From positions 1 to 48,321 of IMG/VR virus record IMGVR_UViG_3300027881_000020: 48,321 nt of DNA. The stretch is one strand, 5' to 3'. Source of the DNA: a virus. The position numbers were made by a program, and so were the translations under genes. The notes beneath the pieces were generated by a model that was not told the origin of the DNA, ran no database searches, and was given only the letters and a program-made list of their open reading frames with translations. The first letter of the stretch is position 1, and each line of letters opens with the position of its first letter. Positions 2,864-45,353 of the stretch are shown here, piece after piece.

Positions 2864-2867
2864 GATA

Positions 2868-3536
2868 ATGGAGATAACATTACCAGGCAACGATATTCAG
2901 CATGAAGTGATAATAACCAAAGATGTCTATGATAAAATATTAGCCATATCAGAAGTCATGGGTGACAATGAAGCAGGTGGATTATTGATTTGCGACGAAA
3001 CAATAAATGGAACAATAATTGTTGAAGACATAATAATACCCAAGCAAATTGCGTCAGGTGGTGATGTCACAATAACTGCTGAAGATGTAGCCAAGACGTT
3101 AGAGGGATTCATAACAACGAATCCAGAAATGTGGGAAAAATGCAGAGGTTGGTGGCATAGTCATGGTGGAATGGAAGCCTTCTGGTCGATAACAGATACA
3201 GATAACATTAAAAATTTGATGAAGATGTTTACACCTGTCTTATCAATAGTGACAAATTCAGTTGGACAGATGATTGTAAGGATTGACGGCAACACAAAAG
3301 ACGGAAAGCAATTTACAATAGACGGATTAATTCCAACCATAGACAATGCGCTATCAGAAGCGAAGAAATGGGCAGCCGAACAAAGCAAGAATGTGGAAAT
3401 ATCACAGATTTGGAAGAAATCGAAATGGTGGAATACAAAGAAAACGATAAGCAATATCCAGGCAGATGAAGATAGGATAGCAGATGAAGGCGAGGGATTT
3501 TATAAAGATAGTTTCGGGATATACTATGGATACTAA
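2868..3536 (+). CDS. JAB/JAMM metalloprotease (Ubl deconjugase)
   Basis: The ATG at 2868 follows GGAGGTGA, so I prefer it over upstream in-frame starts. The 222-residue protein has the whole JAMM set: Glu35 (NEAGGLL), then His97-Ser-His99, seven residues, Ser107 and Asp110 (HSHGGMEAFWSITD). These bind the zinc and the catalytic water in MPN+ isopeptidases. The tail after residue 165 is basic and Trp-rich and not part of the domain. In a Ubl-E2-E1 operon its likely job is removing Ubl from targets; the Ubl already ends in Gly-Gly, so maturation is not needed. Confidence 0.88.
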   Translation: MEITLPGNDIQHEVIITKDVYDKILAISEVMGDNEAGGLLICDETINGTIIVEDIIIPKQIASGGDVTITAEDVAKTLEGFITTNPEMWEKCRGWWHSHGGMEAFWSITDTDNIKNLMKMFTPVLSIVTNSVGQMIVRIDGNTKDGKQFTIDGLIPTIDNALSEAKKWAAEQSKNVEISQIWKKSKWWNTKKTISNIQADEDRIADEGEGFYKDSFGIYYGY

Positions 3537-4206
3537 GGTGGACTATTGGAGACAGTTAGGGATAATAAACCCCGCCGACCACCAAAAAGAAAGCATAGCT
3601 ATAATTGGTGCGGGTTCTATTGGTTCAGCGACAGCCCTTTGTCTTGCAAAGGTGGGGTTTAAAAGGATAACAGTGTGGGATTCAGATAAGATAGAAAAGC
3701 ACAATCTCCCTAATCAATTATATCCATTAGATAGTGTCGGACAATTAAAGGTGGAAGCGTTAGCTGATATGGTTGCATATATGACTGGCACTAGTATAAC
3801 CATTATGCCATTTATGTTTGAAGAAAAGTATGTATGGACTGAAACGATAGTTATAGCTGCAACTGACAGCATGGAGAGCCGTAAGATGATATGGAAGACG
3901 GTTAAATTCAAGCCCAATATCAAGCTATACATAGATGCACGAATGGGTGGGCAGCTAATGAGGGTATTCACAGTCAACCCTATGTCAGCTAATGAGTGTA
4001 AGAGGTATGAAGAATCTCTATATACAGATGAGCAATCAATAGATGAACCATGCAGCGAGAAGAGCATAGCATATAACATATTTGGCATAGCTTCAATCAT
4101 TACGAATCAGGTTAAGAAGAGATTGAAAGAAGAGCATCTATATAATGAGATAGACTTCGATTATGTAACCATGATGATAGAGACAGAGGATTGGAATAAA
4201 GATTAA
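3526..4206 (+). CDS. E1-like ThiF/MoeB-family Ubl-activating enzyme
   Basis: The 226-residue form from ATG 3526 begins just before the family's usual YxRQxGI start; an ATG at 3484 would add 14 residues. It shows the ATP-binding GAGSIG (28-33), the DSDKIEKHNLPNQ segment (52-64), Lys75 and the catalytic Asp114 (ATDSMESRK). Candidate thioester cysteines are Cys158 and Cys176 (EPCSEKS). It is single-domain, like ThiF/MoeB, and lacks the CxxC zinc pairs. Its job is to adenylate the Ubl C-terminal glycine with ATP. It overlaps JAB by 11 bases and closes the operon. Confidence 0.88.
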   Translation: MDTKVDYWRQLGIINPADHQKESIAIIGAGSIGSATALCLAKVGFKRITVWDSDKIEKHNLPNQLYPLDSVGQLKVEALADMVAYMTGTSITIMPFMFEEKYVWTETIVIAATDSMESRKMIWKTVKFKPNIKLYIDARMGGQLMRVFTVNPMSANECKRYEESLYTDEQSIDEPCSEKSIAYNIFGIASIITNQVKKRLKEEHLYNEIDFDYVTMMIETEDWNKD

Positions 4207-8998: not shown

Positions 8999-9162
8999 GG
9001 TGTCCGAAGCACGACATTCCTTTTGTTCGGACCCTTGAGAAAGAATCATCTACTTTTACAACCATGAGATTCTGGTCTAAAGGTGTCAACCGCAATAAGA
9101 AGAAGAAATTAAGGGACTTCCTTGGACCAAGCAAGACGGATTCTGCACAAGCAACTATTTAG
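8926..9162 (+). CDS. Basic zinc-knuckle protein (78 aa)
   Basis: It starts after AAGAAGGAGCT. The N-terminal segment CPAYKCTKKGEQGLRCPKHD is a C-x4-C / C-x2-H zinc site. The tail is strongly basic (NRNKKKKLRDFLG), suggesting binding to nucleic acid. It overlaps the coiled-coil gene by 73 bases. Confidence 0.55.
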   Translation: MPIEKHIVWRCPAYKCTKKGEQGLRCPKHDIPFVRTLEKESSTFTTMRFWSKGVNRNKKKKLRDFLGPSKTDSAQATI

Positions 9163-9169
9163 AGGAACC

Positions 9170-9760
9170 ATGAAAGTATTGAATTTATATGCTGGTATAG
9201 GTGGAAATAGAAAGCTATGGAAGGATGTAGATGTTGTAGCAATAGAGAACAATCCAAAGATAGCCAAGATGTACCAAGAGTTCTTTCCAAATGATAAAGT
9301 GATTATAACGGATGCTCACCAATATCTTTTAGACCACTTCAACGAGTTTGATTTTATGTGGTCATCACCACCATGCCCCACACATAGTAGAATAAGAAAG
9401 GCGAGGCACGACCAAAACCCACCCATATATCCAAATATGAAGCTCTATGAAGAAATCTTGTTATTGCAAGGATACGCCAAATGTAAATGGGTGGTCGAGA
9501 ACGTAATAAGTTGGTATAAACCGCTAATAATACCACACGATGTTGGAAGACATTATTTTTGGAGCAATTTCCACATATCACCGTTCAAGATAAAAACACG
9601 TGGTCACATGCTTCCAAATAAAGAGTTAATGAAAATAAAAGGATTTGAAGTGAACGATACGACAATATTGAGAAATTGTGTTGAACCAAGGTTAGGATTG
9701 CATGTATTCAATTGTGCCTTCAAAGATAAGCAAACGTATTTAAAGACTACTACCAATTAG
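9170..9760 (+). CDS. C5-cytosine DNA methyltransferase-like protein
   Basis: The ATG at 9170 follows TTTAGAGGAACC. In 196 residues it shows the SAM motif LNLYAGIGGNRKLW, the acidic residue of motif II (AIENNP), the catalytic loop SSPPCPTHSRIR with Cys69 (in place of the usual PPCQ) and the motif VI ENV (WVVENVIS). It would methylate cytosine C5 in DNA, perhaps protecting viral DNA from host nucleases. It is short: the target-recognition domain and motifs IX-X of bacterial Dcm enzymes are reduced. No partner restriction enzyme is beside it. Confidence 0.8.
   Translation: MKVLNLYAGIGGNRKLWKDVDVVAIENNPKIAKMYQEFFPNDKVIITDAHQYLLDHFNEFDFMWSSPPCPTHSRIRKARHDQNPPIYPNMKLYEEILLLQGYAKCKWVVENVISWYKPLIIPHDVGRHYFWSNFHISPFKIKTRGHMLPNKELMKIKGFEVNDTTILRNCVEPRLGLHVFNCAFKDKQTYLKTTTN
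9736..9747 (+). promoter_or_regulatory. Candidate TATA box for the small zinc-ribbon gene
   Basis: CGTATTTAAAGA lies inside the 3' end of the methyltransferase gene, about 25 bases upstream of ATG 9766. The ATG has no ribosome binding site, so a leaderless mRNA is likely. Confidence 0.45.
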
Positions 9761-32424: not shown

Positions 32425-32870
32425 AATGTCCAACAACTGGTTCGATTGCAAGTGGATTGGGATTTAGAGAAAGAGTTTGCGATACGATAGATAGGTTTAA
32501 CTTTCCCGAAGACATTAAGGATGATGCCAAGAGGATTTCCTTTGACCTTCCACAGAAGCATACTGCCAAGAAGACAGCAGTAATATCACTATTCTTATCA
32601 TCTCAACTGAATGCGTTTGACTTCAGGAAGCGATTGGCTGAGACAATCAAGATATATAATGATGATGATTTCTTTGCGGTCGTGGAGAATGGACCGTCAA
32701 TTCGGATGTTCCTATCCAGAATAAAAAGGGATGCAACTGGTTTTGAATATGATTTCTCAATACTTGAGAGGATGCATAAGAAACTAGAGGACACTTCTAG
32801 CAACACCGAAAGTCAAAGCGGGTCCTTGCTTCTTAGCAGCCCAGATACCCAAAGCCAAGGCGGTAGCTAA
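32421..32870 (+). CDS. Helical protein, possibly cyclin-fold-like; tail overlaps terL (149 aa)
   Basis: It overlaps the preceding stop. The core (RERVCDTIDRFNFPEDIKDD, AKKTAVISLFLSSQLNAFDF) resembles one cyclin repeat of archaeal transcription factor B, with CPTTGS at the start. This likeness is weak. The last 24 residues are Ser/Gln-rich low complexity encoded opposite the terminase C-terminus; the genes converge and share 87 bases. It may act in viral transcription, or be unrelated. Confidence 0.5.
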   Translation: MKCPTTGSIASGLGFRERVCDTIDRFNFPEDIKDDAKRISFDLPQKHTAKKTAVISLFLSSQLNAFDFRKRLAETIKIYNDDDFFAVVENGPSIRMFLSRIKRDATGFEYDFSILERMHKKLEDTSSNTESQSGSLLLSSPDTQSQGGS

Positions 32871-33950
32871 ATCGTCGTGACCATACTTGGGATGTGATAT
32901 GCGTGTTATTGTATCTGCCTTTCTTTCTCCTTTCAACTCAACTAACTGTTTTTTCAGCTTGTCATTCTTACCCAGTATTATTTGCTCCGCCTCGATTAGC
33001 CTTTTTAAATTGAAGAACAGGTCTTGTTTCGTCTTGATGGAGAACCTGAATGCCTCATTAGGGAGCATTTCCAATATTATTCCCTCACCCATGCCTGTGG
33101 AATCGTAGACTATGTTCTTGAATCCCCATTCTTTGTGAAGCTCTTCTATTATCTTGACCTGTTGTGGGATGGTCCTTCCTATATAGGAATAGAATCGTGC
33201 GACTGAGAATGGTGTGGTATCAATCATCTTGTTGAACTTCGGTCTATATTCTATTACACATGCAGCAGCCTCATCCTTCCCCACAGTGGCAGGGTCATAT
33301 CCCAAGAAGTATTCATAGATGGGTTCAGGTCTAGTTCTATAATTATCCTTTAGCATGCACTTATCGACATCTGCTGGTCGGAAGAGCAAGTCAGCAGTAT
33401 CTATGAACGCACCGAGATATTCCTCTCTCCACTCTATCTCACTCATGGAGTCTCTCGCTATCTCTATCTCTTCCTTGCTTGCAAGCGGGTTTGCCTCTGT
33501 GACGAAATGGTGCTTGGCGAACTTGTATTTGGAGTCATGGAAGTATTTGAAGAACATGTTGTTGCATCCATTGGGTGTTCCGATGACCATTAATATCCCA
33601 TCGGTGGTGACAAGCATCGGACGGATGACAGCATAGACCTCATCCTCGATATGTCCACCCTCATCTATGATGACAAGATTTGCGGTGAATCCTCTAAGGT
33701 TGTCACCACTTCCAGCAGCAGGTAGGCTATATATAGCAGAGTCATTATCGAACTCTATGACAGTCTGTGTCTCTCTTATGATGGTATCCCTAAGTCTAAG
33801 GTCTTTCTTCTCAAAGGAGGATTTCGTTAAAAGGCTCTTCATTCTTCTAAATAGGATGTTGCTTGCTCTCTGCGTTGGGCTAATAATAAGTACAGTTACG
33901 CCATCATGCATCACAGCATACCATAAGCCCTTAATAGCAGCCATCTCGGT
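32784..33950 (-). CDS. terL: Large terminase subunit, C-terminal part (Walker B to nuclease)
   Basis: Read from ACC-GAG at 33950, this frame gives TEMAAIKGLWYAVM and on through the ATPase (LIISPTQRAS, Walker B LVIIDEGG, coupling motif MLVTTDGILMVIGTPNG) and an RNase-H-like nuclease (YFLGYDPATVGKDEA, VYDSTGMGEG, HDDLATALALG). It packages DNA into the head. The Walker A lysine is missing here and lies on the segment at 34034-34153, across an 83-nt insertion. An ATG at 33944 could start a version without Walker A, unlikely to work alone. It lies far from the portal on the other strand. Confidence 0.88.
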   Translation of the reverse strand, partial: TEMAAIKGLWYAVMHDGVTVLIISPTQRASNILFRRMKSLLTKSSFEKKDLRLRDTIIRETQTVIEFDNDSAIYSLPAAGSGDNLRGFTANLVIIDEGGHIEDEVYAVIRPMLVTTDGILMVIGTPNGCNNMFFKYFHDSKYKFAKHHFVTEANPLASKEEIEIARDSMSEIEWREEYLGAFIDTADLLFRPADVDKCMLKDNYRTRPEPIYEYFLGYDPATVGKDEAAACVIEYRPKFNKMIDTTPFSVARFYSYIGRTIPQQVKIIEELHKEWGFKNIVYDSTGMGEGIILEMLPNEAFRFSIKTKQDLFFNLKRLIEAEQIILGKNDKLKKQLVELKGERKADTITRISHPKYGHDDLATALALGIWAAKKQGPALTFGVARSVL

Positions 33951-34033
33951 TTTAGGTACCTCGGCCCTGTCCTTCTATACAAGTGGGGGATAGTACCAAC
34001 CACTTATAGTAAGAACTATCGGACAATGCAGAC
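33951..34033 (-). other. 83-nt hairpin-forming insertion in the terL Walker A codons
   Basis: Removing these 83 bases joins GGT AAG to ACC GAG and rebuilds GRQVGKTE; the exact ends can slide by up to three bases (flanks GGTAAG and AAAACC). The length is 2 modulo 3 and the exon frame hits TAG five codons in, so unremoved it breaks the gene. It folds: GTCC/GGAC, CTATA/TATAG and AGTGG/CCACT stack in one stem with a 13-base loop. Intron, translational bypass element or inactivating insertion are possible; I could not draw a canonical bulge-helix-bulge. Confidence 0.75.
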
Positions 34034-34153
34034 CTTACCCACCTGACGACCGCAAGCCATGATTTGCCTTTTGTGCATATCATTTAATGGTGCTTTCTGA
34101 TAATCGAATGCTTTCCAGTTCAATGCTACATCTGCGAATTCTGTTGGATTCAT
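34034..34153 (-). CDS. terL: Large terminase subunit, N-terminal part with Walker A
   Basis: The 40 codons read MNPTEFADVALNWKAFDYQK and APLNDMHKRQIMACGRQVGK: an adenine-binding Gln-type start and the Walker A of large terminases up to its lysine. The frame then meets TAG inside the insertion. The ATG overlaps the stop of the upstream gene by ATGA and is preceded by AAAGGAG and AAAAGGA, so it is a genuine start. Joined to the downstream part the protein has about 428 residues, a usual terminase length. Confidence 0.85.
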
Positions 34154-34329
34154 TTCCTTTTCTCTATCTCCTTTCTAATGAGTTCTCTTGAATCAGCCTT
34201 GACTCCTTCCAAACTCTTTGGTGATGTCCTGAGTATTATTGCCATCGCTTGGTCTTCTGTGAATACTTGAGTTTCCATCAATGCGGTATAGAATGCTCCA
34301 AACCATTCAGCTAAATCTTTGGGGTCCAT
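34150..34329 (-). CDS. Small helical protein upstream of terL (59 aa)
   Basis: I chose the ATG at 34329, which overlaps the preceding stop (TAATG) and follows GAGGG; an ATG at 34335 adds two residues. The product (DPKDLAEWFGAFYTALMETQ) is helical. Its coupling to terL suggests a packaging partner, but it is too short for a normal small terminase subunit. Confidence 0.6.
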   Translation of the reverse strand: MDPKDLAEWFGAFYTALMETQVFTEDQAMAIILRTSPKSLEGVKADSRELIRKEIEKRK

Positions 34330-34502
34330 TACCATCCCTCTCTAACTATGTTATCACTTCTCGGACCCTTAATGGTAAAGGGTTTGTTGCACCTTCTACA
34401 TAATGTTCTCTTCTCATATATCTCCCACTTGAAGTTTAATTTGTAATGGATATAATTCTGGACATTCTTACACTTAGGACATTGGACTATGAGCTTTAGC
34501 AT
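34329..34502 (-). CDS. Zinc-ribbon protein (57 aa)
   Basis: I chose ATG 34502, six bases after GTAGGAGG; the frame is open further upstream to 34553. The product has CPKCKN and CRRCNKPF, a four-Cys ribbon with a basic loop between, and resembles transcription-factor-type ribbons. It is co-transcribed with terL. Confidence 0.6.
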   Translation of the reverse strand: MLKLIVQCPKCKNVQNYIHYKLNFKWEIYEKRTLCRRCNKPFTIKGPRSDNIVREGW

Positions 34503-34625: not shown

Positions 34626-35651
34626 TCACTGAACTAATAAATCTATACATTTTATTGCCTTCTCTGCTCCCTTATCCCAAGTCCATTCCTCAATGTTTGG
34701 GTACTTCTTGATTTCATATCTTTCAATATACATGCTTCTAAGTGCAGCTTTAAGGTCTACCAAGTATGGTCGCTTCCAATTACCATTGTCCCATGGGCTA
34801 AACTTGGCGGGTACGAAATTGCTTTCCAACTTCCATACCCTATCACCATTGAGGTAATCAACCTGACCACCCCATGAGTTGTGTATTATCGGCAACCCAC
34901 AAGCCATTGCCTCAAGCGTTCCCATATCAAAGCCTTCACCAGCACTTGGGCAAACATAACAGTCTGCGGTATTGAATATCTGAACCATCTCTTCTTCCGT
35001 GTAGAAATCGGTGTCAACGACAGTTCCTCTACCTTCGAGTTCCTTTGATGCATCACCATAGCTTGTATTGATTTTCAAATGAAGCAAGACCTTCGCATCT
35101 TTAATCTCGTCCTTGAACTCTTCCCTATAAGCTCTCACTAAAAGGTCTGCACCCTTTCTGTCACCTTCACCAGTATATCCGCCATTGAATAGGAACTTGA
35201 AGTATGGTTTGGAATCTCTATGTTGCATTGTATATATTGGAGTATAACCATGCGGAACTATATGTATCTTTTCGGAAATCACATTATTCGCCAACAAGTT
35301 ATCCCGAACATGTTTGCTTGGGACCCAGATTTGTGCGATTCTATCCAGATTCATGTCACGAACTGCACTTTCTGGGAACCTCGTTGACTCAAGCACAAAA
35401 TTGGCTATAATATGGTGTTCCCCGTTGAATCTGAAGGGGTTATCGAAGTAGACTCGCCCGAATACTACGTCCTGCTTGCGCAGTTTGGGCATACCCCCCA
35501 ACAATAGGGTATAAATCCTATCAGGAAGATAGCCTCTCTGAACAAAATCAACACATTTAACAGATGTCTTCTTTGACATGGCGAAAGCTAACTCTCGGAC
35601 TGCCTTCGAGTAACCACTAAATCCCCTGACATTATCTATCGTATAGAACAT
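34626..35651 (-). CDS. GT4-family glycosyltransferase (341 aa)
   Basis: It has the GT-B pattern: an N-terminal acceptor domain (RGFSGYSKAVRELAFAMSKK), then FLFNGGYTGEGDRKGADLLV, VCPSAGEGFDMGTLEAMACG and PIIHNSWGGQVDY, where the EGFxxxxLEAMA motif binds the sugar nucleotide. It would move a sugar from a nucleotide donor to a glycan in the cytoplasm. It is the last gene of the glycan island, read just before the terL group; a 123-base gap without a clear gene separates the two. Confidence 0.85.
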   Translation of the reverse strand: MFYTIDNVRGFSGYSKAVRELAFAMSKKTSVKCVDFVQRGYLPDRIYTLLLGGMPKLRKQDVVFGRVYFDNPFRFNGEHHIIANFVLESTRFPESAVRDMNLDRIAQIWVPSKHVRDNLLANNVISEKIHIVPHGYTPIYTMQHRDSKPYFKFLFNGGYTGEGDRKGADLLVRAYREEFKDEIKDAKVLLHLKINTSYGDASKELEGRGTVVDTDFYTEEEMVQIFNTADCYVCPSAGEGFDMGTLEAMACGLPIIHNSWGGQVDYLNGDRVWKLESNFVPAKFSPWDNGNWKRPYLVDLKAALRSMYIERYEIKKYPNIEEWTWDKGAEKAIKCIDLLVQ

Positions 35652-35846
35652 TCATCCCACATAGCTCATGTCTTTCTTCCCTGGATAATATTTGTCATTG
35701 ATAACCCAAAGATTCTGTTGCAATACATCGGCAATTAGGGCGGTCGCTGTTTCGACAGCCAAATCTCCTATATCTATTTCATAGACTTCTATTTCTTCTT
35801 TCTTGAATCTCCATTTGAGTCTTATAGTCCCTTGTGCATTAGTCAT
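35652..35846 (-). CDS. Small alpha/beta protein (64 aa)
   Basis: I chose ATG 35846, which overlaps the previous stop by ATGA, over ATG 35861. The product begins MTNAQGTIRLKWRFKKEEIE and ends in a Tyr/Lys tail. It is coupled on both sides (its stop touches the GT4 start). Function unknown. Confidence 0.5.
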   Translation of the reverse strand: MTNAQGTIRLKWRFKKEEIEVYEIDIGDLAVETATALIADVLQQNLWVINDKYYPGKKDMSYVG

Positions 35847-36085
35847 TTTGTTTTCCACCATCCTTCATCATAATCCCCTTTATACGCCCTAAGTGCGCTT
35901 CCCATCCTATTAGCTAAAACACCAGCTTCTCTCGTTCTTAATTTTATTTGTTCTTTAAGCCAATCGTTTTCAATATCATCTGCTGTTCTATGAATATCTC
36001 GCAATACCTCACATATAGTCCAACGGGGATTTATTATCGTCATGTCTATTTTGTCCGATTCTTCTTTTGATACTGGTCTGACCAT
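35843..36085 (-). CDS. Conserved small helical protein (80 aa)
   Basis: ATG 36085 follows AGGAGG at a good distance but overlaps the glycosyltransferase by 40 bases; ATG 36043, just past that gene's stop, is the alternative. The core (INPRWTICEVLRDIHRTADD then LRTREAGVLANRMGSALRA) is helical. No function known. Confidence 0.55.
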   Translation of the reverse strand: MVRPVSKEESDKIDMTIINPRWTICEVLRDIHRTADDIENDWLKEQIKLRTREAGVLANRMGSALRAYKGDYDEGWWKTK

Positions 36086-36843
36086 TCTTTCATCCTCCTT
36101 TTGAATTTCGTGATATTCTTAGTTCGCATGTCCTTTGTCTCATCCCGTGTTCCACCAACGGGAGCCATCACATGCCAACAAACCGCATCGGGCACAATGA
36201 AAAGCTGGTGTCCCATGATTTTCATTCGATGCACGAAATCAGTCTCTTCCCTATATCCTGTCTTCCCATAGCATTCGGCACAGCGAATCTTCTTGCCAAT
36301 CTCGTTGCGAAATATGAATGAACTCCTTATGTCATCAGATTCAATGGGTATATCGGTGTTATAAAAATAACATTGGTCTGCCTCACCATCCAAATCAAAG
36401 AACTCTGTGATGGCATTCATCTTCTCGGGAGGTTCCCTATATATCTTCTCGTTTGATAGGACTGGAACCAATCCACCAACCGCAGCAATACTATCGGTTA
36501 GGTTTATCAAATCATATAGTTTTTCCAGATAATCGGGTTCGCAGATGCTATCGTCATCAATCCTACAACCGAACTCGCAGTCGCACATGTCCATGGCAGC
36601 GTTCCTTAAGACACCAGTATCCCTCGTATCGGGCATGTGCTTGTATATGATGCGATGCCCTTCCCAGTTGATGCGGGTCAAAAGCGAACTGCATAGATGG
36701 TCATTGGAGATGGGATTGGTGGAGTTGTCCACCAGGAACAAATCCCATTCCTTTTTGGTTTGCCTTAGAAGCGAGGTGAGTAATGCTGCTAAGTATGATT
36801 GCCTATCCCTTGTTATTATCTGAATTCCTATCCTTTTAAACAT
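36046..36843 (-). CDS. GT2-family glycosyltransferase (265 aa)
   Basis: A GT-A fold enzyme: start RIGIQIITRDRQSYLAALLT, then DLFLVDNSTNP, RNAAMDMCDCEFGCRIDDDS with the metal-binding DDD, and a C-terminal ETDFVHRMKIMGHQLFIVP, the catalytic ED-like region. It transfers sugars from UDP- or GDP-donors. It overlaps the radical SAM gene upstream by 16 bases. Confidence 0.82.
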   Translation of the reverse strand: MFKRIGIQIITRDRQSYLAALLTSLLRQTKKEWDLFLVDNSTNPISNDHLCSSLLTRINWEGHRIIYKHMPDTRDTGVLRNAAMDMCDCEFGCRIDDDSICEPDYLEKLYDLINLTDSIAAVGGLVPVLSNEKIYREPPEKMNAITEFFDLDGEADQCYFYNTDIPIESDDIRSSFIFRNEIGKKIRCAECYGKTGYREETDFVHRMKIMGHQLFIVPDAVCWHVMAPVGGTRDETKDMRTKNITKFKRRMKEWSDQYQKKNRTK

Positions 36844-38105
36844 TCTATCTCATCCCTCAAGCGTACAATATTTTCGGCAGTCAGTTCATCCGTCCTCACA
36901 GGACTCACATACTTTCCAGGCTTTCCCTTATAGAAATGACTTCCCTTTGAGAAATCATCCCTGTTAAAATAAAGGCCATTGTATTTAAATAAGTATTCCT
37001 TGAACTTAGTGGATTTCACTGCATCGTCATATATTTGCGAACCAGGATAAGGATTCATTATCGTTATATCGAAATCATCGGGATTTACTCTCTCAATCCA
37101 ATCCTTTGTCAAATTGACATCTCCTTCAGTCTCACCAGGAAGTCCTATTATGAGGAATGATTTATGTCGGAATCCAGCTTTCATTATCATCTTGGCTGCC
37201 TTCATGTTGATGTCATAAGTGGTGTGCTTGTTAATAGCCTCCAGCATCCTATCGGAACCAGACTCCGCACCACTACACACCTCGACGAATCCACACTTCT
37301 CCAGATAGTCCAATGTCTCTGGATGTTTTACAATCAAATCGTTCCGCACGAATCCCCGATGGATATAGCCTCTATTCTTAAGGAGTTGTGCGAATTCCTT
37401 CAACCTTGGTGGGTTTATGTTAATCTCATCATCGAACCACATGAATGCATTATAACCAAAAGTGTCGTTAAGATAATCCATCTCTCTCACGACATCCGCA
37501 GGTTCCCGTTGCCTTGAAATCCTATACATTTCTATATCCCTTCCACAACAGAATCGGCAGTTAAATGGACAGCCTCTTTGTGTCATTATGTTTGTTGCCC
37601 CTCTTCCATTTATCTCATACTTATAAGATGACATATTGTAATGCATCCTATCAGGTATTGGTAATTCATTCACATCTATAATCGGCATCTTGACCCATTT
37701 CTCAGTATATATGTCTTTAAATAATTCGCCTTCTCCTTCGACGATGACATCAAACTTCTCCAATCGCTTTGTGTTTATATCGGTTATTCCTCTTCTTCGT
37801 AGAGCCGATATTGCTGTCGCATGAGGTCCACCGATTATGGTCCTAATACCATATCTCTTAAGAATCTTGTTCATCTCGTAAATATAGTAGAACTGTGCTG
37901 TCGTTCCAGTAAACATGACCGTATCATAATCAGGATGAAGGTCCCATATTATACACTCTATCTTGGTTTTCCAGTTGGGAATCCCAGACAAATCAACGAC
38001 TTCAGAGTTTTCCCATGTACTTGCAAGATAGAGTGGTGCGAGGGTGGGGAACACCCTCTCATTCATCAGAAACGGACTTGGCGGATTTATTATATAATTG
38101 GTCAT
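36828..38105 (-). CDS. B12-binding-type radical SAM enzyme (425 aa)
   Basis: The start follows GAGGGAGATGT. The N-terminal part (NPPSPFLMNERVFPTLAPLY, then FTGTTAQFYYIYEMNKILK and GGPHATA) is a cobalamin-binding-like domain. The middle has the iron-sulfur motif CPFNCRFC and a radical SAM barrel (FDDEINI, GAESGSDRMLEAINK, IGLPGETEGD). Such enzymes methylate or rearrange unactivated carbons. Between glycan genes it may modify a sugar or lipid; the substrate cannot be told. It is rare in viruses. Confidence 0.82.
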   Translation of the reverse strand: MTNYIINPPSPFLMNERVFPTLAPLYLASTWENSEVVDLSGIPNWKTKIECIIWDLHPDYDTVMFTGTTAQFYYIYEMNKILKRYGIRTIIGGPHATAISALRRRGITDINTKRLEKFDVIVEGEGELFKDIYTEKWVKMPIIDVNELPIPDRMHYNMSSYKYEINGRGATNIMTQRGCPFNCRFCCGRDIEMYRISRQREPADVVREMDYLNDTFGYNAFMWFDDEININPPRLKEFAQLLKNRGYIHRGFVRNDLIVKHPETLDYLEKCGFVEVCSGAESGSDRMLEAINKHTTYDINMKAAKMIMKAGFRHKSFLIIGLPGETEGDVNLTKDWIERVNPDDFDITIMNPYPGSQIYDDAVKSTKFKEYLFKYNGLYFNRDDFSKGSHFYKGKPGKYVSPVRTDELTAENIVRLRDEIECLKG

Positions 38106-38700
38106 ACATCTCCCTCACAGTAACATATTCAAATTGATGTTCTTCGAGCCATTTGACAACATTCTTGAATATTGTCGGGTCATCAATATTGTTCTCACCA
38201 TATTCCTTATTGACATGTGCATGAAGAATAACACATTCCTTCTTGGGTTCTTCGAGTTTGTGTACATGGTTTAATTGTATGTTTTTGTCCACTCGTTGGC
38301 TAAGATATGGGATAAACGACTTATAAACCTCAGTAAACTCCGATGAATATAACCAACCAGGCGGTCTCAATACCTTTGGATTCAATCTAACAACGCAATA
38401 TGTATTCATCATGGCAGTCAATCTAGCAATCAAGTCCTTATATGATAATGACAAGAATTCGCAGTCATAATAATAAGAACCAGTATGGAAGTATCCATGT
38501 GCCTCTATGGTACAGAAGTTTTCGATGTCACGAACCCACTCGAAATTGTCCCGTAGGTCATTTCTTCCCATCATATTGGCAGGCACGAATACCGTTGGTC
38601 TATATCCCATTCGGTTTAATTCCCTTAAGTTGTTATATGGTGCGCTTCCCTGTGGGCATGTTTCTGGGCAGACATCATCACAATCAAGGCTTACTAACAT
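38059..38700 (-). CDS. NodB-like polysaccharide deacetylase (213 aa)
   Basis: I chose ATG 38700 (after GAGGGGGTC); the frame is open further. The motifs are VSLDCDDVCP (catalytic and metal Asp), EAHGYFHTGSYY (metal His pair), LRPPGWLYSSE (RPPxG) and LHAH near the end. It would remove acetyl groups from N-acetyl sugars of a glycan. It lacks a signal peptide, so it works on cytoplasmic intermediates. Confidence 0.75.
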   Translation of the reverse strand: MLVSLDCDDVCPETCPQGSAPYNNLRELNRMGYRPTVFVPANMMGRNDLRDNFEWVRDIENFCTIEAHGYFHTGSYYYDCEFLSLSYKDLIARLTAMMNTYCVVRLNPKVLRPPGWLYSSEFTEVYKSFIPYLSQRVDKNIQLNHVHKLEEPKKECVILHAHVNKEYGENNIDDPTIFKNVVKWLEEHQFEYVTVREMYDQLYNKSAKSVSDE

Positions 38701-39406
38701 CTTTTTTGACCCCCTCGACTGCAACACACATGACATGACAGTTTCTCCATCTTTCTGTGTCCACAAACGAGACCATTTGATGCCCTGTACCAGCAGTCAT
38801 TTCATGTATTCCAAATATATCCATGTTACCATTCAAATTGGTCATTAATATACCCACGAATTCTTCCCAACTATATTCATAGAAATGCGAACCTCCTGGT
38901 GGGTATTTCCATAGGAAACCTTCCCTTTGCGGAGTCGTTATAAAAATGGTTCCTCCAGGCTTTACCCATTTCCGAAGATTAGCTATATATCTCTCAACAT
39001 AGTGTCTTGGAACATGCTCGAATGTCTCTATGGAAATGACCACATCGAACTGGTTTTCAAGTGGGTCCTTTTCAACATTCCTAATTATATCCCGTTGAAC
39101 GACATTGAATCCATAGTTCTTCTTGATGTGGTCCAATGCCTCTTTTTGATGGTCGAGACATGTGACTTCTTTGGCTCCGAGTGCCTTAACTACCATTGAA
39201 CCATAACCATAACCAGATGCAGCATCGAGTACTGTTTTGTCCTTACACCAATGACTTGCAACATAATATCTGTAAAGGCATGAAAAATTATCCGCATTTA
39301 CGAATGGGTCCAAATCTTCTGGTGGTATATTCTCCCTTATCGGTTTTTCCAACATTAAAACCGATTGTGGTATTTCTCTCTTCTCTTCAGGGATTCCTTC
39401 TGTCAT
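38684..39406 (-). CDS. SAM-dependent methyltransferase (240 aa)
   Basis: Class I methyltransferase motifs: VLDAASGYGYGSMVVKALGA, CLDHQKEAL, FDVVISIETFEHVP and VKPGGTIFITTPQ. It is a likely glycan O- or N-methyltransferase, given its epimerase and deacetylase neighbours. It overlaps both by a few bases. The acceptor is unknown. Confidence 0.8.
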   Translation of the reverse strand: MTEGIPEEKREIPQSVLMLEKPIRENIPPEDLDPFVNADNFSCLYRYYVASHWCKDKTVLDAASGYGYGSMVVKALGAKEVTCLDHQKEALDHIKKNYGFNVVQRDIIRNVEKDPLENQFDVVISIETFEHVPRHYVERYIANLRKWVKPGGTIFITTPQREGFLWKYPPGGSHFYEYSWEEFVGILMTNLNGNMDIFGIHEMTAGTGHQMVSFVDTERWRNCHVMCVAVEGVKKDVSKP

Positions 39407-40170
39407 ATTCCTTCCTCCAATGTTCTTTTAAGACCAGTCTCAAGCGTGTACTTTGGCTTATAACCCAACTTAGCGACCTTTGACCAATCCACTTCGACTG
39501 TCTGTGGTTGTGCGGATTCTTTCTCTGCAAACAGGATAGAACTTTTGCTTCGGGTTTCCTTTATGATTATCTTTGCTGCATCAACCACATATCTACTGTC
39601 ACTACCAATATCATAATCCTCATTCCAATCTCCCTTCTCAAGTATCAAATCGAATGCGTCGAGGAAATCGTCTATGTAAGTGAAATCTAATGTCTTCTTG
39701 TCATTACCATAAACTACAAGCGGGTCATTCTTCATGGCTGCTATGGCAAAGATGGTGACAAGTCTTGGTGTTGTATTGCAGTGTGGACCATATACAGTGG
39801 ATGGGCGTATTATCTTATATCTAAGCCCATAGCAGTCATAATACGCCTTGCAGAGTTCCTCGCCATAAATCTTGCTTGCGGTGTAGGGGTTGTTCTCCCT
39901 ATTCAATACCCTACTAGAACTAAAGAAGATAATATCCGAATCCCTCTTCCTTGCATACTCAAAGACCTCTTCAGTTAGTCGAACATTCTGAAGAAAGCAG
40001 AGTTCGGGGGCCTTTATGCATGAATTGATTTTGGTAAGCGCACCACAATGAACTATCAGTTGTGGGTTGTAATTATATAGGTCATAGAAATTTCGCAGGT
40101 CAACGCCATTGGCATTATATTTCCTAACAATATTTCCACCGATGAATCCATTGGAACCAGTCACTAACAT
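39403..40170 (-). CDS. NAD-dependent nucleotide-sugar epimerase/dehydratase (255 aa)
   Basis: An extended SDR enzyme: cofactor motif VTGSNGFIGGNIV at the very N-terminus, HCGALT, FFSSSRVLN, the catalytic Tyr-Lys pair in NPYTASKIYGEELC, IIRPSTVYGPH and FTYIDDFLDAF. It would make the activated sugar used by the neighbouring glycosyltransferases. It is shorter than the usual 310 residues, and begins right at the first strand. It overlaps the next gene by four bases and the GT2 stop by one. Confidence 0.85.
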   Translation of the reverse strand: MLVTGSNGFIGGNIVRKYNANGVDLRNFYDLYNYNPQLIVHCGALTKINSCIKAPELCFLQNVRLTEEVFEYARKRDSDIIFFSSSRVLNRENNPYTASKIYGEELCKAYYDCYGLRYKIIRPSTVYGPHCNTTPRLVTIFAIAAMKNDPLVVYGNDKKTLDFTYIDDFLDAFDLILEKGDWNEDYDIGSDSRYVVDAAKIIIKETRSKSSILFAEKESAQPQTVEVDWSKVAKLGYKPKYTLETGLKRTLEEGI

Positions 40171-41867
40171 TAGTCCAACCCCATAAACTTCGGATGTTTA
40201 CCATTATATACCATTCTCGGTCGCTGTGTGGTAACATCAATAGTGCCGACAATCCTACTTACTGGTTTTTCGGGCTGTTTGAATCCTTTATCATCCCAAA
40301 ACACGAATGGTTTTTCCTGCTCCTGATAAGTTCTCATTCGGACTCTCTCTATTCCCCGACAAAACCCATAGTGTGCAATTGCTATGCTTCTCGTTTTGGC
40401 AACCAGTCCCTCCCATTCAGGCCAGAAACGGTAAAGGTATGGTACATTCCTATATTGCTTGGTCCTTGCCACAATGTCTTTGACATTGCATGGTGCATGA
40501 TGATAGCGATGTATCATCTCAGTGGAGGGAGTTAGTTTGAAGATTCTCCTTTCGCTATAAAAGTCGCCTGGACCTTCCCCATAGTCCACCGAATTGATGT
40601 GTGCATAATCGTAGACAAAATCACGCATAATCGGATTTAGGCAGTTGAATCCCCGAAGTTCTAGGTATGTTGCTGTCTTTCTAAGCAAATCGTCTGGAAG
40701 CTCATAGAAAACCAAATCAGGTTCCATCTGTATCGCCCAATCAACCTTGCCTTTGAGCTTTTGTAATGCCCTATCCGTCAATAAATCCAATCTGTTTGAG
40801 TTGTATCCGAGAACATCAATATCCTCTGCTGGTTCGTGCAATATCTCAACGGGTGGGCTATCTTTTAGTTTCTTGAAAATATCTATGAGCTTTAATGTCT
40901 TATCCTTACTTCCGTTGTCGATAATCACTATATAATCCACGAGCTTCTGAATGCTAAGAAGGCTTTGCATCACATAGAACTGTTCGTTGCATGTTGCGTA
41001 GAATGCGCCTATCTTCTTTTTCGGAAGATTCCAGAATTCTCTATTGAATTTAAATCCATCGACATCAACAATCTCTCCTTGGTGTGGATTGAATTGAAAA
41101 CAAATATCATCCCTCCTATCTCTATATGGGAGAATCAGATTGACAAAAGCATCTTCCTCACCATTTATATTAAACCACGTGCTTCCTATGTTGCCCATAT
41201 GATAAACCCCTCCAGGGACAACGATTATCTTCTCTCCGAGATTTCGTATCGAATTCTTCGATTCCTCATACTTATCTTTTACGGGATGTCCCATCATCCA
41301 CCAGTCAATCTTGCTTCCTATTCCACTAGGCTTGGGACCCTTCATTGGGTCTGGAAGAATCGGGAGGAACTTCTTCCACCGTTCGGCAGAAGCGAATAAA
41401 TGGGTGCTTCTTTCAGTCGGTTTTGCAATGCAGTCCATACCAGCAATCTTTAACGGGAATGCGGGTTTCTTCTCTTCTTTGCATGGGTGTTCTGGAGAGG
41501 AATGGCATGTAACGAATCCTATGTTCTTGACATCGCTTTCCCATACCTTTTTGCAAGCCTCCAACCAACCCTTCCTAAAAAGGACATCATTTTCCGTGTA
41601 GCAGATATATTTAATCCTAGGGAACATTTCAAGTATTCTCATCAATCCCACATTCACCATTGCCCGAAGCCCAAAATTCTCGGGTGAATGCACATAATCA
41701 AAATTCTTTCTTTTTATCGACGATAAATATTTCACAGTATCATCCGTGCTTGCATCGTCCATTACAGAGACGAATACATCATCAGGAATCGTATTGAATA
41801 GCGATTCTAACGTGTTCTTCAAAAAATCCTTCCTATTATAACTACTAATCAAGATTGCTGTGTCCAC
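40170..41867 (-). CDS. Two-domain GT2 glycosyltransferase (565 aa)
   Basis: I chose the GTG at 41867, after GGGAGGAG, at the natural domain start (VDTAILISSYNRKDFLKNTL); an ATG at 41939 is possible. Domain 1 has MDDASTDDTVKYL and CYTENDVLF; domain 2 starts KKIGAFYATCNEQFYVMQSL with IIDNGSKDKTLKL and WAIQMEPDLVF. Two GT-A domains in one chain suggest successive addition of two sugars, as in polymerising enzymes. Its stop touches the epimerase start. Confidence 0.8.
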   Translation of the reverse strand: MDTAILISSYNRKDFLKNTLESLFNTIPDDVFVSVMDDASTDDTVKYLSSIKRKNFDYVHSPENFGLRAMVNVGLMRILEMFPRIKYICYTENDVLFRKGWLEACKKVWESDVKNIGFVTCHSSPEHPCKEEKKPAFPLKIAGMDCIAKPTERSTHLFASAERWKKFLPILPDPMKGPKPSGIGSKIDWWMMGHPVKDKYEESKNSIRNLGEKIIVVPGGVYHMGNIGSTWFNINGEEDAFVNLILPYRDRRDDICFQFNPHQGEIVDVDGFKFNREFWNLPKKKIGAFYATCNEQFYVMQSLLSIQKLVDYIVIIDNGSKDKTLKLIDIFKKLKDSPPVEILHEPAEDIDVLGYNSNRLDLLTDRALQKLKGKVDWAIQMEPDLVFYELPDDLLRKTATYLELRGFNCLNPIMRDFVYDYAHINSVDYGEGPGDFYSERRIFKLTPSTEMIHRYHHAPCNVKDIVARTKQYRNVPYLYRFWPEWEGLVAKTRSIAIAHYGFCRGIERVRMRTYQEQEKPFVFWDDKGFKQPEKPVSRIVGTIDVTTQRPRMVYNGKHPKFMGLD

Positions 41868-42430
41868 AAGAAATCTCCTCCCTTCATTAACTGGATATAC
41901 CAAACAGAACCTTTGTGGTCCAATTTGATTATATCCCAATCCTTGAATATGTCTTTAACGTCTTCCTCTGGTAATTCATATTCGTGTTCAGAACATTTGA
42001 AACTTGGGTCTGGCCATTCGATTATCATTTTACCGAATTTCTTAAGCACCCTTCTACATTCTTTGAGTACATAAATAGCATCCTTTTTGCTTAAGTGTTC
42101 AAGTGAATTGAGTGCCACAATCACCGCCACAGACTCGTTTGGCAATGGAAATGGATTTCCTTCTTTCATTTCAAATACCTTTCCATTTATTCCTATTTTC
42201 CTGCATGATTCTATTGCGACGGACGATATATCCAAATTATATGCGTTTGATGGTGCAGAGACAAGTGATAACCATTTGCCATCACCCATGCCAAGACCAA
42301 GAACTGGTCCCATAAAATTAACACTTGTTAATAATTCTTCTTCATCTGGTGATATTTCGATTGTTCTATTCTTCCAATGATGCTTATTCCACATTCCATC
42401 CCAATATTCTGCTGTATTTACCCCTGACAT
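41849..42430 (-). CDS. SAM-dependent methyltransferase (193 aa)
   Basis: I chose ATG 42430, after GGTGAAAAG; an upstream in-frame ATG lies at 42478. The motifs are VLGLGMGDGKWLSLV, NLDISSVAIESCRK, VIVALNSLEHL and KFGKMIIEWPD. It belongs to the class I family (type-11-like). It overlaps both neighbours and is probably part of the glycan pathway. Confidence 0.75.
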   Translation of the reverse strand: MSGVNTAEYWDGMWNKHHWKNRTIEISPDEEELLTSVNFMGPVLGLGMGDGKWLSLVSAPSNAYNLDISSVAIESCRKIGINGKVFEMKEGNPFPLPNESVAVIVALNSLEHLSKKDAIYVLKECRRVLKKFGKMIIEWPDPSFKCSEHEYELPEEDVKDIFKDWDIIKLDHKGSVWYIQLMKGGDFLWTQQS

Positions 42431-42960
42431 CTTTTCACCTTCACAAACATCGAATTCTCTACTGTCATCCATGCCCAATCCCTACTTCTTAAGAACCATC
42501 TGAATTTATACATGTCTCCAGCATAAACATCATGGCTTCCGAGAATCGCACCCTCATTCGCAAGCGGGAATATCGTCTTGAAAAGCGGAATCAGGTAATC
42601 AGGTTCATGTGTACCATCATCGAAGTAATAATCCACTTTGGGTCGGTGGGTCCTGAACCATTGGTGGACATCCTCGTCATACCACTTGTAAAATGGGAAT
42701 TTCTTCTCAAGCAACTTGAAGAGCTTCTTGTTTTTGCTATAATCCTGCATTTGGTCGCCATGGACACCACAATCATCTATGGTAATCACTTTGCAATAAT
42801 GTTTGATTGCGTAAGTGAGCAATACCTTAGTGGAATATCCACCACCACACTCGATTAGAGTGATGTCTTTCTTACCATGGAGCATTGTCAATCCCATGAA
42901 TGGGAATTGGTTGCTATACTTGTCGAAATCTATCTTTTCAAGCTCTTCTTTGTAGTTCAT
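42418..42960 (-). CDS. Methyltransferase-like protein (180 aa)
   Basis: It starts at ATG 42960. TLIECGGGYSTKVLLTYAIK is a SAM-binding loop and DYYFDDGTHEPDYLIPLFKT is typical of the type-24 methyltransferase group, often found beside glycan genes. The Asp in VITIDDCGVHGDQ would hold SAM. The acceptor is unknown. It is coupled to the zinc-ribbon gene upstream. Confidence 0.72.
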   Translation of the reverse strand: MNYKEELEKIDFDKYSNQFPFMGLTMLHGKKDITLIECGGGYSTKVLLTYAIKHYCKVITIDDCGVHGDQMQDYSKNKKLFKLLEKKFPFYKWYDEDVHQWFRTHRPKVDYYFDDGTHEPDYLIPLFKTIFPLANEGAILGSHDVYAGDMYKFRWFLRSRDWAWMTVENSMFVKVKRCQG

Positions 42961-43082
42961 TGACAATACCTCGCTGGGTCAAGTGGCAAGACTATCTTGC
43001 GACCACATTTGGAACAAACAGCGTCCCCTTTACACGCCTGACACTTTACATTTATCACTATATATTTGCTCTTCTTCACCAC
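42957..43082 (-). CDS. Zinc-ribbon miniprotein (41 aa)
   Basis: A GTG start lies seven bases after GAGGTGA and inside the end of the upstream glycosyltransferase gene. The product has CQACKGDAVCSKCGRK, four close cysteines forming one zinc knuckle. Coupled to genes on both sides. Role unknown. Confidence 0.5.
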   Translation of the reverse strand: MVKKSKYIVINVKCQACKGDAVCSKCGRKIVLPLDPARYCQ

Positions 43083-43954
43083 AGTTTCATCACCTCTGGT
43101 AGTTTGCCTGCGTAGTGAATGCATGGGAGTGTTCCGTTTATCTTGGGGTGCTTCGCACAGTATTCGTCGTCTGTAAGACCTTTCCTGTCGGCAAACCATG
43201 GATTGTCCTCGATTCTTCCCCTTGTAGCGTATTTGCCTCTAAGGTCCTCAATCCCTTTGCAGTGACCGAAGTGCCATATCGTTGGCATCTTGTCGTTTTC
43301 TGTCTCGACAACCGACCAAGTTGGATTAACCTTGTCTAATAGCCTTTTTGGTGTCAAACCCACATGTTTCGGGAAATATGCGTATTTCTTGTCCTTTTCC
43401 TGCTTGTACCATATCATTACCTCATGCACTTTCCTTTGGAACTCTATCTCGATGGGTTTCTTGGGTATCTTGAACAATCGCTGTGAGGAGTGATGAAATC
43501 CGCCCTTTGTCGCATCTATCGTGAAATAGTTCCACATGAAATGCCTTGTAAATATGTCAAAGACTTCGGCATAATATTTCTTCTCTTTGTCTTCTTCCTT
43601 GAATGTGAATTTTATCCTAAATAGCTTGAGAAGCTGTTTTCTTGTGACTGGACTTCCATCGGAATTGGCGAATATCTCATCCGCATCCAAAAAGAGTACC
43701 CAATCCGTTTTATGCTTTCTCATATCATCTAACATCTCATTTCGCCACTTAGCGAAATCCACTTCCCCTTCTTTTTGCATTATGAATCTCGTTTTCTCTC
43801 TGACATCCATGGGTATCTCCATGCAAGTCAAATCAGCCATCTTGCCATATTTCCTAAAAACAACAATATCATCCACGATGTCTTTTATGCTATTTATGGA
43901 ATAATGCAAGTAGGGCTCATTCTCACCGACCAATACCATTCCTGTTATTTTCAT
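43076..43954 (-). CDS. GT2-like glycosyltransferase (292 aa)
   Basis: It starts KITGMVLVGENEPYLHYSIN, with a central DWVLFLDADEIF (the DxD metal site) and FHHSSQRLFKIPKKP, then FGHCKGIEDLR. This is the layout of GT-A enzymes of the WaaE/KdtX type. The acceptor is unknown. Its start overlaps the previous stop by four bases. Confidence 0.78.
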   Translation of the reverse strand: MKITGMVLVGENEPYLHYSINSIKDIVDDIVVFRKYGKMADLTCMEIPMDVREKTRFIMQKEGEVDFAKWRNEMLDDMRKHKTDWVLFLDADEIFANSDGSPVTRKQLLKLFRIKFTFKEEDKEKKYYAEVFDIFTRHFMWNYFTIDATKGGFHHSSQRLFKIPKKPIEIEFQRKVHEVMIWYKQEKDKKYAYFPKHVGLTPKRLLDKVNPTWSVVETENDKMPTIWHFGHCKGIEDLRGKYATRGRIEDNPWFADRKGLTDDEYCAKHPKINGTLPCIHYAGKLPEVMKLW

Positions 43955-44133
43955 TTTTCATGCTCCTTCTTAAGTTTTTCATGTAATCCCGCAATCCCTT
44001 CACTCAAAACATGAGAAATAATAACTAACCATGTAGATACTGACCAATCCTTGGGTCTAAATTTCATATCAATTACTTTAAGTTCACCTTCTTTTGTTAT
44101 TATTCCTTCAATAATATATTTAAATTTGGTCAT
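43951..44133 (-). CDS. Small hypothetical protein (60 aa)
   Basis: The product starts MTKFKYIIEGIITKEGELKV (two strands) and has a helical hydrophobic centre (WLVIISHVLSEGIAGLHEK) with a Lys-rich end. It overlaps both glycosyltransferase genes by four bases, so it is translated with them. No family recognised. Confidence 0.5.
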   Translation of the reverse strand: MTKFKYIIEGIITKEGELKVIDMKFRPKDWSVSTWLVIISHVLSEGIAGLHEKLKKEHEK

Positions 44134-45353
44134 TTTACCTCCTGACTGTATTCTGTTACCTTTCCGTGTTCAAATAATTCTAACCATGCTCTGGTCACTC
44201 TCTCCCAATTATAGGTCTTAAGGACTTCCCTTCTACCCATCTCGCCCATTCTCTTCCTTTCAGCTTCATTATCATAAAGATATTCAAACTTATCCACCAT
44301 ATCCTTGATGCTCGGGATAGCCCTCTTGGTATTCAACTGTCCTATGATATAGCCCTCCTCGTCGATTTCACCGACACGCCTCACAAGTAGACCGTTCTTT
44401 CCTATGAGTTCCCTGCTTGTCGTGCAGTCTGTGAGGATATTGGGTATTCCTGCTGCCATGGATTCTATTATAGGCAAGCCGAATCCCTCGCCTGTTGTGG
44501 GGATTGTATGAATATCCATAAGATTGTATATTAAGTTGACGGTTGCTTCTCCTTCGCCATGACAGAACCGTTTCATGCTAAAGAAAACGTCCTCATTCAG
44601 TTTAAGATTGAGCCGATTGCTCAAATCGAGAAGATTCCATCCCTGTGGGTCAACTGGGTCACAATGGCATACAAGTGCCGATTTGGGGTGTTTCTTATGA
44701 AATCGCACGAAAGCCTGGAATAATGCTGGATACATCTTCCTACTTTGGTTTCTCGCTATGCAACCTATGATGAACTTATCGTTTAGTTTGAAATTCTCCC
44801 GTTCCTTTTGAACAATTTCTCTTGGAATCGGTCGGTAGATGGTGGTATCAACTCCATGAGGAATATAGAAGGAATCCATATCGAGTTCCTTTTTGAGAAT
44901 CTTCTGTCCGAACTGCGACATCGCAACCTTAATGTCAATCTGCTCCATCACTTCTTTGACTCCCGTATATGCATCTGCGGAATCAAAGGGAAAGTAGAAA
45001 AGCGTCTTGGCGTTGATTTCCTGCCTGTTTTTGATTATCATTTTCTTGTCGTCTTTGGTGACTATCTTCTCGTCACCCAACCACTTAATCATAAAGGAAT
45101 CCGCTAAGAAGGCAACTATGTCTGGTTTTATCGTGTTCGTCCAATATGGCACAGAACCTTTGTTGCCATAGGTCTCATCATGGTTCATCGGGTAATGGAG
45201 AGGATAGGGAACAGCCTCATCCATTCCCTGAAACATCCAACTAAGCTGATGTGCGTCTATACCAGCTTTCTGAAATCTAGTTAATAGGTTCCTCGTCACC
45301 TGTGCATACCCTGTTGGTAAATGAACTGTGTCTGCACACCATAGTATTCTCAT
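44130..45353 (-). CDS. GT4-family glycosyltransferase (407 aa)
   Basis: A complete GT-B enzyme: RILWCADTVHLPTGYAQVTR, then YIPHGVDTTIYRP, FIIGCIARNQSRKMYPALFQ and TTGEGFGLPIIESMAAGIP with the sugar-nucleotide-binding EGFGLPxxESMA motif. Closest in style to mannosyl- or glucosyltransferases of surface polysaccharides. It is the first enzyme read in the glycan island. Confidence 0.87.
   Translation of the reverse strand: MRILWCADTVHLPTGYAQVTRNLLTRFQKAGIDAHQLSWMFQGMDEAVPYPLHYPMNHDETYGNKGSVPYWTNTIKPDIVAFLADSFMIKWLGDEKIVTKDDKKMIIKNRQEINAKTLFYFPFDSADAYTGVKEVMEQIDIKVAMSQFGQKILKKELDMDSFYIPHGVDTTIYRPIPREIVQKERENFKLNDKFIIGCIARNQSRKMYPALFQAFVRFHKKHPKSALVCHCDPVDPQGWNLLDLSNRLNLKLNEDVFFSMKRFCHGEGEATVNLIYNLMDIHTIPTTGEGFGLPIIESMAAGIPNILTDCTTSRELIGKNGLLVRRVGEIDEEGYIIGQLNTKRAIPSIKDMVDKFEYLYDNEAERKRMGEMGRREVLKTYNWERVTRAWLELFEHGKVTEYSQEVK

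What the first reader, a model, noticed from the sequence alone, without database searches (positions are those of the whole stretch)
33951..34033. Terminase P-loop interrupted by an 83-nt structured insertion
Seen: the minus strand reads ...ACGRQVGK then 83 bases with an early TAG, then TEMAAIKGLWYAVM... The flanks together make a standard Walker A and a protein of about 428 residues. The N-terminal part is coupled by ATGA to its upstream gene, so it is translated. The insertion forms a stacked hairpin (GTCC/GGAC, CTATA/TATAG, AGTGG/CCACT). Known: terminase P-loops are favoured sites for inteins and introns, but those are much longer; archaeal bulge-helix-bulge introns in protein genes are rare. 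Inference: a mini-intron removed by the host tRNA endonuclease, or a translational bypass with Lys codons AAG and AAA as take-off and landing sites.
Basis: partly seen in the sequence, partly recalled or inferred. Interest (0 to 1): 0.88.

Follow-up and report, generated by a model that had tools for sequence, protein, structure and literature searches.

The report
tRNA-type intron inside viral terminase gene
A virus that probably infects archaea has its DNA-packaging motor gene broken in the ATP-binding loop by 83 bases that carry the RNA shape archaea use to cut introns out of tRNAs, so the virus very likely borrows the host's tRNA-splicing enzymes to make this essential protein.

Summary
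On the minus strand, TerL is split after CGRQVGK by 83 nt with stops in every frame. The nearest ortholog (52% identity) reads IMACGRQVGKTEMAAIKGL straight through the junction, and some 50 other TerL relatives are uninterrupted there.

The decisive feature lies at the borders: a 3-4-3 bulge-helix-bulge (hA GGU/ACC, central GGGU/ACCU, hB GUCU/AGGU; bulges AA^G and AA^A). Archaeal endonuclease cuts there would excise 34034..33952 and leave GGT-AAA-ACC-GAG (GKTE), exactly the Walker A. Only one of seven registers has it; chance is about 0.0002-0.002. Six predicted tRNA introns in an archaeal MAG score alike at their splice sites, which validates the register.

The host is probably archaeal (HGTV-1-like TerL, halovirus-like portal, BRE/TATA sites 35-56 nt upstream of ORF starts) but is not identified.

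Best explanation (0.8): a tRNA-type intron cut by host EndA and sealed by RtcB. In the literature searched, proven precedent in protein genes is cbf5; in viruses, only unproven 12-bp SIRV1 insertions. Splicing is not shown, and the unconstrained RNA minimum shifts the 5' bulge by one base.

The parts
34035..34153 (-). TerL exon 1 (119 nt): codons 1-39 and the first two bases of the Lys40 codon of Walker A
   Evidence: ortholog alignment
33952..34034 (-). 83-nt putative BHB intron (GGTC...CTAA)
   Evidence: absent from orthologs
32784..33951 (-). TerL exon 2 (1168 nt): last base of the Lys40 codon, then TEMAAIKG... to the stop; Terminase_6N/6C matches
34041..34043 (-). 5' strand of exon helix hA (GGU), pairs with 33948-33950 (ACC)
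34037..34040 (-). 5' strand of the 4-bp central helix (GGGU), pairs with 33954-33957 (ACCU)
34034..34036 (-). 5' bulge AA^G, predicted cut between 34035 and 34034
34030..34033 (-). 5' strand of intron helix hB (GUCU), pairs with 33958-33961 (AGGU); two G-U pairs, not in the unconstrained minimum
33958..33961 (-). 3' strand of hB (AGGU)
33954..33957 (-). 3' strand of the central helix (ACCU)
33951..33953 (-). 3' bulge AA^A, predicted cut between 33952 and 33951
33948..33950 (-). 3' strand of hA (ACC, the Thr41 codon)
34150..34335 (-). upstream 61-aa ORF, coupled to TerL by ATGA

Best explanation
The 83 nt are an archaeal tRNA-type (bulge-helix-bulge) intron in the pre-mRNA of a tailed-virus terminase. 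In the transcript, the end of exon 1 pairs with the 3' end of the intron and the start of exon 2, forming hA (GGU/ACC), a 4-bp central helix (GGGU/ACCU) and hB (GUCU/AGGU) with two 3-nt bulges. The host splicing endonuclease EndA cuts AA^G and AA^A, the host ligase RtcB joins the exons, and the mRNA then reads GGT AAA ACC GAG, a complete Walker A (GRQVGKTE), giving a 428-aa TerL. The intron interrupts the codon of the catalytic lysine (phase 2), so unspliced mRNA gives only a 45-aa peptide. Shown: interruption, empty site in orthologs, BHB in one of the registers that restore the protein, exact restoration. Inferred: archaeal host, cleavage, ligation and any regulatory effect.
For: Joined protein matches uninterrupted orthologs across the junction. 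Only register 34034 of seven has hA 3, central 4/4, hB 4, and it is one of the five that restore the protein. Chance 0.02-0.2%. Central-helix pairing probability 0.95-0.97 with 30-400 nt of flank. Six predicted tRNA introns (23-80 nt) in a Pacearchaeota MAG score hA 5-6, central 4/4, hB 0-3 at or within two bases of their predicted splice site with the same function. [quoted passage not shown] Archaeal-type virus. A MAG holding a related viral contig has EndA and RtcB.
Against: No RNA evidence. The unconstrained minimum extends the central helix by one U-A pair and prefers UC/GA to hB; enforcing the strict motif costs 5.1 kcal/mol. The exon helix is only 3 bp before an internal loop. No second intron-bearing copy, so no covariation test. 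Host not identified; the record encodes neither EndA nor RtcB.
Confidence: 0.8

Rival explanations
1. Inactivating insertion: terL of this genome, or of a minority variant, was broken by an 83-nt insertion, possibly a small element with a TAA target duplication, and the copy is dead.
For: TAA is repeated at both borders. No RNA data. All relatives lack the insert. Recent loss of function would leave the two ORFs intact.
Against: The insert carries the BHB in a protein-restoring register (chance 0.02-0.2%). No copy of the insert anywhere else. Both exons are fully open, and this is the only TerL found in the record.
Confidence: 0.09
2. Translational bypass: ribosomes stop at AAG (34034), skip 83 nt and resume at AAA-ACC.
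For: Lys codons AAG and AAA lie at the two borders and the gap is structured.
Against: The codons are not identical and there is no stop after take-off; the first stop is six codons on. The gap is longer than the 50 nt of T4 gene 60 (general knowledge). The model does not account for the exon-intron BHB.
Confidence: 0.04
3. Assembly or sequencing artefact: a chimeric join introduced 83 foreign bases.
For: Single metagenomic record; no raw reads available here.
Against: The insert matches nothing else in the window, in IMG/VR by exact pattern, or in the fetched loci; a random join would rarely be exactly reparable and carry a BHB in register.
Confidence: 0.04
4. Another class of intervening sequence: a degenerate self-splicing intron, an intein, or frameshifting through the insert.
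For: Phage terminase P-loops are known homes of introns and inteins (general knowledge).
Against: No Rfam match in the window. 83 nt is far below group I/II size. Stops in all frames exclude an intein, and frameshifting would need two shifts and would leave residues inside Walker A.
Confidence: 0.03

Closest known systems
BHB introns of archaeal cbf5 pre-mRNA (Yokobori 2009, PMC2738675)
   Different: cbf5 introns are 16-44 bp, lie in cellular crenarchaeal genes, usually have relaxed motifs, and splicing is proven; this one is 83 nt, viral and unproven
Archaeal tRNA introns
   Same: Core geometry (4-bp central helix, two 3-nt bulges) and size (11-175 nt in PMC2738675; 23-80 nt)
   Different: Sits in a protein gene; exon helix is 3 bp plus 9 more pairs beyond an internal loop instead of an anticodon stem
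Putative 12-bp introns of rudivirus SIRV1 (Peng et al., as cited in PMC2738675)
   Same: Proposed introns in protein genes of an archaeal virus
   Different: Those are 12 bp, frame-neutral, arose during passage and were not shown to be spliced; this one is 83 nt, not frame-neutral and carries a 3-4-3 BHB
T4 gene 60 translational bypass
   Same: Structured non-coding gap inside a phage gene with similar codons at both ends
   Different: No stop directly after take-off, longer gap, BHB pairing present

Membership tests
Archaeal BHB (tRNA-type) intron | 4-bp central helix and two 3-nt bulges at the exon-intron borders | tested here: met
   (central 4/4 with both 3-nt bulges in register 34034 only); positive control
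Archaeal BHB (tRNA-type) intron | Cuts after bulge residue 2 restore the mature sequence | tested here: met
   GGTAA + AACCGAG gives GKTE as in the ortholog
Archaeal BHB (tRNA-type) intron | Stable outer and intron helices (hBHBh') | tested here: inconclusive
   hA 3 bp and hB 4 bp (two G-U) can form, but the strict motif lies 5.1 kcal/mol above the minimum; hB is also weak or absent in control tRNA introns
Archaeal BHB (tRNA-type) intron | Intron-free relatives of the gene | tested here: met
Archaeal BHB (tRNA-type) intron | Host with EndA and RtcB | tested here: inconclusive
   Host unknown; archaeal-type relatives and promoters; EndA and RtcB in the one MAG that holds a related viral contig
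Archaeal BHB (tRNA-type) intron | Excision and ligation observed | not testable with these tools
   No RNA data
Group I / group II intron | Catalytic RNA core | tested here: not met
   No Rfam match; 83 nt
Intein | Open frame through the insert | tested here: not met
   Stops in all three frames
Translational bypass (T4 gene 60 type) | Matched take-off and landing codons with a stop directly after take-off | tested here: not met
   AAG/AAA are synonymous, not identical; first stop six codons later

The most novel reading that the evidence does not exclude
Splicing by the host tRNA machinery is an obligatory and possibly rate-setting step of late gene expression in this virus: the intron gates production of the packaging ATPase and ties virion assembly to host EndA/RtcB capacity.
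Probability: 0.2. Interest if true: 0.88.

Novelty: new variant of a known kind. Interest (0 to 1): 0.72.

Why it matters
In the literature searched, demonstrated pre-mRNA introns of archaea are essentially cbf5, and in archaeal viruses only unproven 12-bp insertions have been proposed. A BHB intron in the catalytic loop of a tailed-virus terminase would show that viruses rely on tRNA splicing for an essential protein, would mark EndA and RtcB as host factors, and would mean that gene callers truncate such viral genes. It is also easy to test: one short RNA and one purified enzyme.

Tried and rejected
Rfam over the whole window: nothing. ARAGORN on the window and related viral loci: no tRNA. 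Insert searched in IMG/VR by exact pattern, in annotated phages, and against 0.88 Mb of fetched loci: no copy. A BHB of the opposite topology (central helix between intron 5' end and exon 2) was tried by hand and does not form; the control tRNA introns confirmed the topology used. A second split gene in a reciprocal scan (relative G005, L025:11337-10772) proved to be two ATGA-coupled genes. TerL splits in L048 and L079 lie between the ATPase and nuclease domains and have no insert at the P-loop. An apparent coding gap at 38105-38684 was an artefact of ORF selection. The window MCP gave no tblastn hit in annotated phages. A direct scan for other MACGRQVGK-type P-loops in IMG/VR returned only the known ortholog.

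Full report
What is there. The window is a whole IMG/VR virus record of 48,321 bases (ends classed linear, so it may be a fragment) with a capsid, portal and large terminase of tailed-virus type. On the minus strand TerL starts at 34153 and reads to CGRQVGK, is interrupted by 83 nt, and resumes with TEMAAIKGLWYAVM to the stop ending at 32784. The insert has stops in all three frames and 83 is not a multiple of three, so neither readthrough nor a single frameshift gives a fused product. Only one TerL was found in the record.

It is an insertion relative to orthologs. The closest relative found, IMGVR_UViG_3300032118_000017, has TerL in one frame at 52% identity and reads IMACGRQVGKTEMAAIKGL without interruption, identical over 19 residues to the joined window protein. 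TerLs of Halogranum tailed virus 1, a Meiothermus phage and a Thermus phage align across the junction too. About 50 further relatives have an open P-loop where that part is present. A degenerate DNA scan for MACGRQVGK in IMG/VR returned only the same ortholog. Comparing ORFs of related viruses with the window, TerL is the only window gene that appears split.

The border structure. The insert alone is not unusually stable (z -1.18). With 30 nt of flank it is (z -2.36; 5 of 200 shuffles fold as well), because the exons take part. I scored the archaeal bulge-helix-bulge topology: an exon helix, a 4-bp central helix between the end of exon 1 and the end of the intron, two 3-nt bulges, and an intron helix. 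One register of seven fits, intron 34034..33952: hA U-A, G-C, G-C; central G-U, G-C, G-C, U-A; hB G-U, U-G, C-G, U-A. Cuts between the second and third bulge residues, the rule used for cbf5 (PMC2738675), give GGTAA + AACCGAG = GGT AAA ACC GAG, Gly-Lys-Thr-Glu. Five registers would restore the protein because TAA is repeated at the borders; only this one carries the motif.

Chance and control. Keeping the exons and shuffling the insert, a protein-restoring register with hA>=3, central 4/4, hB>=3 arises in 0.2% of trials (0.07% with hB>=4); shuffling everything, 0.05% and 0.02%. As a positive control, 220 kb of a Candidatus Pacearchaeota MAG was scanned with ARAGORN. Six intron-bearing tRNA predictions (introns 23-80 nt; one called with a stop anticodon) gave hA 5-6, central 4/4, hB 0-3 at or within two bases of the predicted splice site. 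The scoring therefore recovers archaeal introns, and the terminase site has the same core. Its exon helix is shorter: 3 bp, then an internal loop and 9 more pairs.

Caveat on folding. The central helix is robust (pair probabilities 0.95-0.97 with 30 to 400 nt of flank; hA 0.74-0.98). The energy model, however, prefers to extend the central helix by one U-A pair and to use UC/GA rather than hB; forcing the strict motif costs 5.1 kcal/mol. Control tRNA introns also had weak or absent hB, and some archaeal endonucleases accept relaxed motifs (PMC12397907). The 5' site is therefore less certain than the 3' site.

Host. TerL is closest among annotated phages to Halogranum tailed virus 1, and 52 of 54 portal hits are haloarchaeal viruses. 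All four matches to a CGAAA plus TATA-like promoter in the window lie 35-56 nt upstream of an ORF start (background 7-8% of positions; the distance range was chosen after seeing the data), but the related virus records do not show the same pattern. Sigma-70-like sites occur at shuffle level. The only capsid relative in the genome scan is a viral contig in a Pacearchaeota MAG that also holds EndA and RtcB. That contig could be misbinned: it carries a PolyA_pol-HD nucleotidyltransferase that resembles the bacterial CCA enzyme. The host is probably archaeal but is not named.

Mechanism. Shown: interruption, exact reparability, motif in register. From established knowledge: archaeal EndA cuts BHB motifs and RtcB joins the ends; tRNA introns are 11-175 nt and cbf5 introns 16-44 bp (PMC2738675). 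Inferred: host EndA and RtcB remove these 83 nt. As in cbf5, the intron sits in the codon of a catalytic residue, here Walker A Lys40, so splicing would be obligatory for an active packaging motor. The record itself encodes neither enzyme.

Comparison and novelty. In the papers held, verified BHB splicing of protein genes is cbf5; in viruses only 12-bp putative introns of SIRV1 are mentioned, with splicing not demonstrated. The library lacks most subscription papers, so an unlisted precedent is possible. This intron differs by its size, by lying in an essential viral enzyme, and by shifting the frame. It works like a known kind of intron in a new setting, hence 'new variant of a known kind'. 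The main remaining doubts are a dead or defective copy and the missing RNA evidence.

Noticed in passing
L121:11781-16464 (contig JAGLGM010000008.1 in a Ca. Pacearchaeota MAG): A tailed-virus contig related to the window encodes an apparent RNA-repair set: RtcB ligase, PolyA_pol/HD nucleotidyltransferase (CCA-adding type), PTH2 and an RlaP-type RNA-repair protein.
   Followed up: partly
L079:2099-3496: TerL of that contig is divided between its ATPase and nuclease domains by one in-frame TAA directly followed by ATG; L048 shows a similar two-gene TerL.
   Followed up: partly
window 2817-4206: Adjacent genes for a JAB-domain protease and a ThiF/E1-like protein, a pair known from ubiquitin-like systems.
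   Followed up: no
window 34626-45353: Island of glycosyltransferase-like, methyltransferase-like, epimerase-like and radical-SAM-like genes next to TerL, largely shared with the relative IMGVR_UViG_3300032118_000017.
   Followed up: no
window 9122-9760: Cytosine-5 DNA methylase ORF of 212 aa that matches only the first 81 of 324 profile positions, perhaps truncated.
   Followed up: no
L025:10772-11337: A gene that is one ORF in relative G002 is two ATGA-coupled ORFs in relative G005, which mimics an intron in a split-gene scan.
   Followed up: yes
window 757, 7339, 9874 (+) and 46068 (-): CGAAA plus TATA-like sequences 35-56 nt before ORF starts, resembling archaeal BRE/TATA promoters.
   Followed up: partly
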